Source: Alloprevotella sp. OH1205_COT-284
GTDB taxonomy: Bacteria > Bacteroidota > Bacteroidia > Bacteroidales > Bacteroidaceae
Length of the DNA stretch: 38,823 nt
NCBI RefSeq assembly: GCF_003859795.1
Contig: NZ_RQYI01000024.1
Span: forward strand, 1-38,823
Reading direction: 5' to 3'
The notes under the pieces were generated by a model that was given only the letters and a program-made list of their open reading frames with translations, made no database searches and was not told where the DNA came from. Both the position numbers and the translations under genes were made by a program. This document shows, one piece after another, positions 8,200 to 26,035 of the stretch. Position 1 is the stretch's first letter. The number at the start of each line of letters is the position of its first letter.

Positions 8200-8254
8200 C
8201 GCGAAACGGGCACGCGCCGACAATCGGGCTTGCCGATTTTTAAGTCGGAAAAAA

Positions 8255-8313
8255 TCTCCGCCGACATCGGAAAAAGAAAACGACAACTCTTTTTCTTCCG
8301 ATGTCGGCGGAGA
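8255..8313. terminator. long hairpin downstream of FAD dehydrogenase gene
   Basis: TCTCCGCCGACATCGGAA (8255-8272) pairs perfectly with 8296-8313. The inner flanks (AAAAGAAAA and TTTTC) can extend the stem imperfectly. It starts 55 nt past the stop codon and probably acts as a terminator between the convergent genes. Confidence 0.7.
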
Positions 8314-8337
8314 AATCGTTTTCTACGTCGATTTTCT

Positions 8338-8726
8338 ACCCTTATTTTTGTTTTTTGCCGTTTTGCTTCCGCTAAAACGCTTATCATCCTGATAATTAGC
8401 AAGTTTCTTGCGAAGGCAAGTGAAGGCAAACCTTTAAGGGGATTTTTAATAATCTAAAAATCAGCACCCTTACGGTGAAGGCAAAAACACTCTTTGCCTT
8501 CACTTGCTTTCACTGACGAAAGACGAAACAACGGCTTTTTCGAGGGAGTGAAAGCAAAAACAAGACCCAATCCCCTGATATTCATACTCTTGCAATCTCT
8601 TATTTCATTTTGCCTTCACTTGCTTTCACCGTAAGTCGTTTGATAGTCAGATAATTAAGTCGTTTAGCGGAGGCAGTGAAGGCAAAAAGTCATCATAAGG
8701 GTAACGCGCGCGTGCGCGAGAGAGAG
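8338..8726 (+). repeat. structured intergenic element, copy A
   Basis: About 389 bp without a gene, homologous to the reverse complement of 25536-25925. The words GTGAAGGCAAA and TTTGCCTTCAC recur several times in both orientations, giving a conserved 11-bp hairpin (8475-8485 with 8493-8503, 7-nt loop) and a 10-bp-period tandem (GAAGGCAAGTGAAGGCAAA, 8412-8430). The right end (8699-8726) is alternating purine-pyrimidine GC followed by GA repeats and is identical in the other copy. Between the conserved blocks the two copies differ. I know of no named family; it could be a MITE-like or REP/BIME-like element or a structured RNA. Confidence 0.8.
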
Positions 8727-8891
8727 TATTTCGGAGAAATGGAAATGTCGAAACGCTCACGCCCTCCTTTGTAGAAAAACTTACCTCAGAGGCCGACGCG
8801 CCTGCGCCTTATGTAGATTTTCCGCCGCGTGGTGTAGGTGATCCGAAAAGCGATGTCCTTTTTCTCAACCGACGCCTCCTGCCCTTTTCGG
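8727..8891. other. spacer between element A and tamL
   Basis: No gene. A single stretch near 8788-8805 (CTTACCTCAGAGGC) resembles one junction of the 21-bp tandem repeat seen at 18025-18192 and 25454-25516. Confidence 0.4.
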
Positions 8892-25453: not shown

Positions 25454-25516
25454 GAGGTAGATTTGTTTAGTTCAGAGGTGGGAAACGCTACATGGGAGGT
25501 AGTGACGATTTCCGGT
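25454..25516 (+). repeat. 21-bp repeat, three units
   Basis: Units start at 25454, 25475 and 25496, each with GAGGT; the first reads GAGGTAGATTTGTTTAGTTC (20 of 21 bases). They match the register and consensus of the eight-unit array at 18025-18192 and have the same orientation. They end 19 bp before element copy B. Confidence 0.7.
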
Positions 25517-25535
25517 TTCGCCATCCTCTTTCTGC

Positions 25536-25925
25536 CTCTCTCTCGCGCACGCGCGCGTTACCCTATTGATTGCTTTTTGCCTTCACTGCCTCCGCAAAAC
25601 GATTTAATCATTTGATATTCATATATCTTACGGTGAAGGCAAGTGAAGGCAAAATAAAAGAAGGATCTGCAAGCATCTGAATATCATGTCGTTGGAAGGG
25701 ATTTTTGCCTTCACTCACTCGAAAAAGCCGTATTTCCTCTTTCGTCGGTGAAAGCAAGTGAAGGCAAAGAGTGGATTTTGCCTTCACCGTAAGGATTCTG
25801 ATTACCAGTCTATTGAAAGTTCCCTTAACAGCTTTGCCTTCACTTGCCTTCGCAAGAAACGCGCTGAAAATCAAAAGAAAAGATGTTTTGGTGAAGGCAA
25901 AACGGCAAAAAACAAAAAATAGGGG
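25536..25925 (-). repeat. structured intergenic element, copy B (inverted)
   Basis: About 390 bp homologous, on the minus strand, to copy A at 8338-8726. The GC/GA end (25536-25563) is identical to the right end of copy A over 28 bp, and the opposite end shares TTTTTTGCCGTTTTGC. The conserved hairpin is at 25758-25768 with 25777-25787 (11 bp, 8-nt loop). Block order is the same in both copies, while the sequence between blocks has diverged. It sits between the merR-like gene and the 3' end of the glycoside hydrolase. Confidence 0.8.
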
Positions 25926-26035
25926 GAGAAAAGCCGTTTTGGCGGTCGCGTAGTGGCTGTTGAAGAAGTTTTTGAGAAGGGCGAAGGCAGGGTGTTCGTT
26001 TGACGGGGAAAAATGCGAGAGAGGGATACAAAAAA

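What the first reader, a model, noticed from the sequence alone, without database searches (positions are those of the whole stretch)
8338..8726. A structured ~390-bp intergenic element present twice in inverted orientation
Copy A (8338-8726) and the reverse complement of copy B (25536-25925) share block order, a conserved 11-bp hairpin of GTGAAGGCAAA with TTTGCCTTCAC, an identical 28-bp GC/GA end, and a shared opposite end, while the sequence between blocks has diverged. Neither copy encodes a protein. Conserved blocks with variable spacers in non-allelic intergenic sites suggest a dispersed family (MITE-like, REP/BIME-like) or a structured RNA. I recognise no described family.
Basis: partly seen in the sequence, partly recalled or inferred. 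Interest (0 to 1): 0.75.

Follow-up and report, generated by a model that had tools for sequence, protein, structure and literature searches.

The report
Evenly spaced repeated DNA docking elements
The two similar intergenic stretches belong to a family of about 60 DNA elements, spread at well-separated positions through the genome of an Alloprevotella-type bacterium, whose short conserved blocks look like protein-docking sites kept by selection, possibly to organise the chromosome.

Summary
The window's genome carries 59 near-complete copies of a ~390-bp element. Related elements occur in 3 more of 58 genomes of the genus (one is Alloprevotella sp. Lung230); in a search of 399 family genomes only these four had more than one block hit. 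A structured RNA is not supported (almost no covariation). It is a DNA array of 21-22-bp blocks, each two ~10-bp repeats (GYGAAGGCAA), facing inward at the ends, with GC-rich alternating purine-pyrimidine tracts outside. Three results stand out. (1) Copies avoid each other: pairs closer than 8-11 kb number 0, 4, 0 and 0 in the four genomes against 14, 19, 10 and 7 expected. (2) In Lung230, block-to-block lengths up to 166 bp step by ~10.4 bp, one DNA turn. (3) In 14 orthologous copies the blocks are 98% identical while interiors (68%) and flanks (71-73%) have drifted. So the blocks seem kept in place, on one face of the helix. Best reading: sites of an unknown lineage-specific DNA-bridging protein that organises the chromosome. 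Strongest rival: a short transposon with target immunity. Neither protein nor function is shown.

The parts
8337..8728 (+). copy A, core of the element (A-G blocks, both ends)
8351..8372 (-). block A (TTTTTTGCCGTTTTGCTTCCGC), inward-facing end block
8390..8398 (.). spacer motif TGANNNTCA-like (A-B spacer; TGATAATTA here)
8410..8430 (+). block B, two 10-bp direct repeats GCGAAGGCAA GTGAAGGCAAA
8474..8487 (+). block C (GGTGAAGGCAAAAA)
8493..8513 (-). block D (TTTGCCTTCACTTGCTTTCAC)
8548..8560 (+). block E (GTGAAAGCAAAAA)
8568..8592 (.). palindromic spacer motif CAAN5TGANNNTCAN5TTG
   Evidence: arms do not pair
8608..8630 (-). block F (TTTTGCCTTCACTTGCTTTCACC)
8667..8688 (+). block G (GCGGAGGCAGTGAAGGCAAAAA), outer end block
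8704..8719 (.). GC-rich alternating purine-pyrimidine tract at the right end
   Evidence: 56 of 56 scored copies have a run of 12 or more
8770..8815 (.). remnant of the associated CTACCTCAGAGGTAG-type array
   Evidence: seen by eye
25534..25926 (-). copy B, core of the element
25833..25853 (-). block B of copy B
25633..25653 (+). block F of copy B
25540..25560 (.). CG alternating tract and GA run of copy B

Best explanation
The element is a DNA site, not a gene. An unidentified sequence-specific protein of this Alloprevotella lineage binds the paired 10-bp repeats in each block. Because the blocks lie on the same face of the helix, the bound protein bridges them and folds the 120-400 bp between them into a compact nucleoprotein knot. 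Some 40-70 such sites per genome, rarely or never closer than ~6-12 kb and (in the one near-complete chromosome looked at) concentrated in one arc that includes the GC-skew origin, act together as anchors or boundaries of chromosome loops (supercoil domains); the alternating CG tracts at the ends may help as supercoil-sensitive (Z-prone) DNA. The family spread like a small mobile element and was then kept like a binding site. Shown: the family, its spacing, the helical step, the block conservation, the CG tracts. Inferred: the protein, the bridging, the anchoring, Z-DNA.
For: 59 copies; core length 405-413 bp in the 30 aligned although many spacer columns carry almost no information. Blocks 605 of 616 identical in 14 orthologous G033/G043 pairs, interiors 2372/3501, 600-bp flanks 71-73%; in a fifteenth pair (L345/L364), left out because one end block is 7 letters off the consensus, that variant block reads the same in both species. 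8 of 14 pairs keep their length within 1 bp, among them L347/L362 (interior 82/179) and L354/L295 (91/166). Lung230 lengths up to 166 bp: period 10.4 bp, R 0.92, n 30; 10.25 bp, R 0.95, n 18 after collapsing similar interiors; 0 of 2000 jitter nulls as high. Over-dispersion: 0 of 40 intervals under 8 kb in G000 (null 14.3), 4 of 55 in G057 (18.9); 0 of 41 under 11 kb in G033 (10.1); 0 of 32 under 9.5 kb in G043 (7.0). Arc in G033: two largest gaps 650 and 495 kb, sum reached by 0 of 20000 nulls; 37 of 43 copies in the half centred on the skew origin. Alternating runs of 12 or more at 56 of 56 right ends in G000, 75-77% of ends in G057, 94% in G033, under 1% in controls. 17 of 60 sites shared with Lung230 (null mean 7.0, maximum 12).
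Against: No protein was found. Only 4 of 58 genus genomes carry it, so the function is not general. One site filled in G043 is empty in G033, and 24 of 65 Lung230 interiors are linked by similarity, both signs of spreading. 6 of 14 orthologous pairs differ in length by 20-123 bp, so the distance is not fixed in the long copies; three short G033 lengths (139, 162, 256) and the longer Lung230 series fit the helical step poorly. The arc is not specific to the origin: centres at 1.25 Mb and at dnaA hold 36 and 32 of 43 copies against 37; the origin rests on 20 sampled stretches and dnaA is 0.5 Mb away. No orientation bias against GC skew in G000 (28 of 60 positive). Copies lie in convergent, tandem and divergent gaps (21, 24, 13 of 58 by crude ORF calling). 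Distance thresholds and the 166-bp cut were chosen after seeing the data.
Confidence: 0.45

Rival explanations
1. A MITE: a short non-autonomous transposon moved by a transposase elsewhere, with target immunity that keeps new copies kilobases away from old ones; helical steps come from pairing of the two ends during transposition.
For: Inverted ends, in G033 exact in 78 of 85 block hits. Filled and empty site. Linked interiors in 24 of 65 Lung230 copies. Mu, Tn7 and Tn3 show such immunity (PMC3562280, passages). Paramecium IESs have ~10-bp length steps attributed to a transpososome-like complex (PMC3464196, passages).
Against: Dead copies should drift evenly, yet blocks stay 98% identical in situ while interiors and flanks fall to 68-73%. 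No transposase was noticed among gene families that recur near the 60 fetched copies (names judged by eye), and the rve-type integrase hits in four genomes have no blocks of their own; other transposase families were not searched. No target-site duplication was recognised at the one empty site.
Confidence: 0.35
2. A family of structured non-coding RNAs made from each copy.
For: Long complementary blocks and constant length in the window genome; several variable pairs alternate between Watson-Crick and G-U.
Against: 2 of 53 pairs with a two-sided change, covariation term -0.77 of -52.5; no Rfam match at gathering score, weak hits at 8204-8326 lie outside the core; spacer motif arms pair at 15 of 110 positions, below chance; helical length steps point to DNA.
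Confidence: 0.07
3. Operator clusters of a transcription factor, or bidirectional terminators, serving the adjacent genes.
For: Most sites look intergenic; convergent gaps are the commonest pair type but one (21 of 58 against 24 tandem); copy B lies 85 bp upstream of a MerR-type gene.
Against: Divergent gaps, where promoters face out, make only 13 of 58; the commonest recurring neighbour family occurs at 6 of 60 loci; gene control does not explain the minimum spacing.
Confidence: 0.1

Closest known systems
BrickBuilt MITE of Porphyromonas gingivalis (PMC4596501, abstract and one section read)
   Same: Bacteroidales, intergenic, multi-copy (19), small inverted ends, lineage-limited
   Different: BrickBuilt is built of tandem 23-nt repeats without spacers; here blocks sit at set distances in drifting spacers, copies repel each other, short lengths step by a helical turn
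MatP/matS of Escherichia coli (PMC3330122, abstract and passages)
   Same: Works like: repeated short sites over one large arc of the chromosome (23 matS in 800 kb)
   Different: matS is a single 13-bp site in the Ter domain; here composite elements of 120-400 bp, mainly away from the skew terminus in G033; no MatP search made
Transposons with target immunity (Mu, Tn7, Tn3; PMC3562280, passages)
   Same: Exclusion of neighbours; inverted ends with several binding sites (the latter recalled)
   Different: No transposase with these ends found; block conservation in situ
Paramecium IESs (PMC3464196, abstract and passages)
   Same: Short elements whose lengths step by ~10 bp, read as loop formation between ends
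   Different: Eukaryotic, excised DNA
REP/BIME (PMC3733652, PMC6379681, search listings only)
   Same: Palindromic repeats, supercoiling link proposed
   Different: REPs are 20-40 bp with GTAG/CGTC tags (listing); not seen here

Membership tests
MITE | terminal inverted repeats | tested here: met
   imperfect in the window genome
MITE | target-site duplication | tested here: inconclusive
   one filled/empty pair, diverged intergenic sequence, none recognised
MITE | ends shared with a transposase-bearing element | tested here: inconclusive
   none seen in flanks of 60 copies nor at 10 rve-type hits in 4 genomes; other transposase families not searched
MITE | no coding capacity | tested here: inconclusive
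   no shared frame noticed in the alignments; no formal test
BrickBuilt | tandem 23-nt repeats without spacers | tested here: not met
   alignments against the abstract
REP/BIME | 20-40-bp palindromes with a GTAG or CGTC tag | tested here: not met
   no such unit in alignments, judged by eye
REP/BIME | associated RAYT endonuclease | not tested
   no search made
structured RNA | covarying stems | tested here: not met
MatP/matS-type organiser | cognate DNA-binding protein | not testable with these tools
   no candidate protein; no binding data
MatP/matS-type organiser | sites confined to one arc | tested here: met
   G033 only: 42 of 43 copies at 437-2055 kb of 2763 kb, one at 2549 kb

The most novel reading that the evidence does not exclude
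A bacterial chromosome-organising system in which some 40-70 composite, helically phased docking sites, flanked by Z-prone tracts and held at least ~6-12 kb apart, define chromosome loops in one arc, and whose DNA code has shifted in concert in each species together with an unknown protein.
Probability: 0.3. Interest if true: 0.92.

Novelty: new variant of a known kind. Interest (0 to 1): 0.72.

Why it matters
Boundaries of bacterial supercoil domains (about 10 kb, recalled) are usually thought not to be set by fixed sequences (recalled). A family of fixed sites with a minimum spacing of that order would let one map, delete and move domain anchors. If it is instead a transposon, it is a natural record of target immunity and of the DNA-twist constraint on short transposons across four genomes.

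Tried and rejected
RNA family: not supported on covariation; a second count with the count of structure pairs failed on string length and was not repeated. Promoter or orientation rule: no strand bias against GC skew, mixed gene context. Autonomous parent: none seen in the flanks of 60 copies; the rve-type integrases look like IS30 (recalled, no call names them) and have no blocks inside. Phage carriage: 0 matches for three exact block patterns in viral contigs. Wider distribution: exact G000/G057-type block in 49 stretches of genome contigs, 48 in Lung230 and 1 in an Oscillospiraceae MAG, own or near records possibly left out; the G033-type block was not in that scan. In 399 family genomes 18 have a match at up to 1 mismatch; the four carriers have 48-83 hits, the other 14 one each, against 9 genomes with one hit of the control pattern. 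In the 58 genus genomes the control pattern had one hit, in G006. Origin-centred symmetry: not specific. Origin at dnaA: not supported by skew.

Rows dropped or unseen: one search left out the short or edge contigs C24, C29, C37 and C38 of G000 and the C2 copy of G057; it included one mini copy (C6:28.1 kb), one variant (C1:145.7) and one edge copy (C1:229.6) of G000. One search measured 65 of 70 Lung230 loci; one search left out the 288-bp one from the wider test, and its G033 test used 27 of 42 lengths (under 260 bp). One search used 14 of 20 G043 loci: five had no clear G033 partner among the fetched loci and one pair (L345/L364) had only one block within 4 mismatches in each member. The rule of up to 4 mismatches biases block identity upward, though not to 98%. 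One search used 56 of 60 G000 loci, 65 of 70 G057 loci and 34 G033 loci. 100 of 148 places were listed. One search used G043 positions, where I count 68 of 80 hits listed; unlisted copies could shorten intervals. One search scored 150 of 1931 first-look candidates in G000. Nearest-gene work used crude ORFs: in 8 of 60 loci an ORF of 200 aa or more overlaps the element by over 80 bp, mostly at one end; true gene ends were not settled.

Full report
WHAT IS THERE. A search of the window's own genome (2.305 Mb, 93 contigs) gives full-length matches at 69-82% identity (100% for the query itself) for the 40 candidates scored of 83. A sequence-only model of the E-F-G part (141 positions) gives 59 matches from position 1-5 to 140 with E of 5.5e-20 or less, plus partial ones, some at contig edges. 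nhmmer with a model of the 30-copy alignment finds, in 60 fetched loci, 57 single full-length or nearly full-length matches, two split ones (L178, L179) and one mini copy (L180).

ANATOMY. In 30 aligned copies the core measured is 405-413 bp. Blocks A, B, D, F and G are 21-23 bp and hold two ~10-bp repeats; C and E hold one. Their order is A(-) B(+) C(+) D(-) E(+) F(-) G(+). The spacers carry small motifs: TGANNNTCA-like in the A-B, B-C, E-F and F-G spacers. In E-F it is set in CAAN5TGANNNTCAN5TTG; this fuller form was matched in 22 of 56 copies and its arms are complementary at 15 of 110 positions, so it is not a hairpin. The element also matches its own model in reverse: it is an imperfect palindrome. 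Outside the right end lies a GC-rich alternating tract (56 of 56 scored copies with a run of 12 or more; 0 of 56 on the left; under 1% in control stretches).

RELATIVES. Of 58 genomes of the genus, four have the block (two free positions, up to 1 mismatch): G000 48 hits, G057 83, G033 79, G043 80; 54 have none; the control pattern has one hit, in G006. In G057 the element is shorter, often with the CG tract at both ends, and block-to-block lengths are 123 to 288 bp in 65 of 70 loci measured; no full-length G000-type match appears there among those listed (best match covers model positions 55-140). In G033 and G043 the end block is GTGAAGGTTGTGAAAGCAAAAA, exact in 78 of 85 hits in G033. The gene 3' to copy A (Omp85 family) has an element of the local type beyond its 3' end in all four carriers, and none in the 900 bp shown for G005, whose protein is about as close (60%).

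NOT RNA BY COVARIATION. 53 predicted pairs, two with a two-sided change in one sequence each. Several variable pairs alternate between Watson-Crick and G-U, which a block variable at GTGAARGC with a fixed partner would also give.

IN-PLACE CONSERVATION. Fourteen orthologous copies of G033 and G043 were aligned. Left block 298/308, right block 307/308 (24 of 28 blocks perfect), interior 2372/3501 plus 642 gap columns, outer 60 bp 605/835 left and 686/837 right, 600-bp flanks 5571/7630 and 5699/8062. Eight pairs keep their length within 1 bp, two of them with interiors only 46% and 55% identical; six pairs differ by 20-123 bp. A fifteenth pair was dropped because each member has only one block within 4 mismatches; its other end is a variant block 7 letters off the consensus that reads the same in both species. 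A neutral inserted copy would not be expected to show this. The mismatch rule biases block identity upward, but not to 98%.

HELICAL STEP. Lung230 lengths fall at 123-124, 133-135, 143-145, 154-155 and 165, with nothing between; then 169-171, 177-180 and upward. For the first series (a cut chosen after seeing the data) the best period is 10.4 bp (R 0.92, n 30), or 10.25 bp (R 0.95, n 18) after merging copies with similar interiors; no jitter null of 2000 reached it. Over all 64 lengths under 230 the fit is weaker (R 0.59 at 11.1 bp; second harmonic 10.4 bp, R 0.49), with the longer series shifted by about 0.4 turn. In G033, 27 short copies are dominated by 209-212, with 188, 199, 221-223 and 231 (R 0.80, best period 11.25); 139, 162 and 256 do not fit. 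Helical steps suggest that something bridges the two ends on one face; this fits both a binding-site and a transposon model (Paramecium IESs are the published parallel).

SPACING. Within contigs the smallest interval is 9.07 kb in G000, 5.98 kb in G057, 11.5 kb in G033 and 9.7 kb in G043. Placement at random, or jitter of each copy by 20 or 60 kb, would give many closer pairs; in each test 0 of 20000 draws had as few. The thresholds (8, 11 and 9.5 kb) were set after seeing the intervals, and the G043 list is incomplete (68 of 80 hits seen). There is an excess at 8-12.5 kb (14 against 6.1 in G000, P 0.0008; 18 against 7.7 in G057, P 0.00015). On the large scale G033 (contig of 2.763 Mb) has 43 copies: 42 lie at 437-2055 kb, one at 2549 kb; the two largest gaps are 650 and 495 kb. 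The half centred on the GC-skew origin (about 1.6 Mb, from 20 sampled stretches) holds 37 of 43; halves centred on 1.25 Mb and on dnaA (1.08 Mb) hold 36 and 32. So an arc is clear, and the origin as its centre is not.

SAME SITES, DIFFERENT VERSIONS. 17 of 60 G000 copies have, within 900 bp, the homologue of a gene that lies within 900 bp of a Lung230 copy; displaced pseudo-sites give 7.0 on average and 12 at most in 200 trials (two G000 loci share one Lung230 partner). Yet the copies looked at in each genome have that genome's own architecture and block letters, which looks like concerted change with a DNA-binding protein; searching with genome-specific patterns favours this picture. Gain or loss also occurs: a G043 copy has an empty counterpart in G033, with about 280 bp where G043 has about 1015.

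MECHANISM. Most likely a protein binds the paired repeats, bridges the blocks, and the resulting knots hold the chromosome at intervals; the CG tracts could absorb supercoiling. I put 0.45 on this as a whole and about 0.75 on the lower claim that the blocks are selected DNA-protein sites. A transposon with immunity is next (0.35). The two may both be true in time: spread first, domestication later.

LITERATURE. Searches of the held library for Alloprevotella repeats or MITEs, BrickBuilt, regularly spaced intergenic repeats, target immunity, matS/MatP, Prevotella interspersed repeats, BIME/gyrase and helical length periodicity (top rows of each listing seen) listed nothing that I recognise as this family. 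Beyond listings I saw PMC4596501 (abstract, one section), PMC3464196, PMC3562280 and PMC3330122 (passages) and PMC5441646 (abstract). A paper outside this library could describe it.

Noticed in passing
window 8770-8815 and 25480-25530; L279, L280, L270, L291: Next to (or inside) the elements lie arrays of short half-palindromes (CTACCTCAGAGGTAG type in G000/G057; CTCCGACGTTTTT type in G033/G043). Some other genomes of the genus without the element show arrays of other units behind the same gene (by eye).
   Followed up: no
G000:C68:5213-5407, G057:C10:7456-7650, G057:C6:121527-121790: Transposase remnants that look like IS30 (recalled) lie within about 1 kb of an element in 3 of 10 rve-family hits in four genomes, although the IS itself has no blocks: maybe a target preference.
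   Followed up: partly
G033:C6:1082352 versus about 1.6 Mb: dnaA lies about 0.5 Mb from the GC-skew origin in G033.
   Followed up: no
window 8220-8325: Long hairpin (CTCCGCCGACATCGGAAAAAGA and its complement) between copy A and the FAD-dependent protein gene, probably a terminator; weak Rfam hits to eukaryotic families there are below threshold.
   Followed up: no
L180 (G000:C6:28.1 kb) and L179 (G000:C1:145.5-145.9 kb): A mini copy of about 94 bp with one block pair, and a variant copy with extra blocks.
   Followed up: no
L345 (G043) and L364 (G033): An orthologous copy whose right block has changed in the same way in both species.
   Followed up: partly
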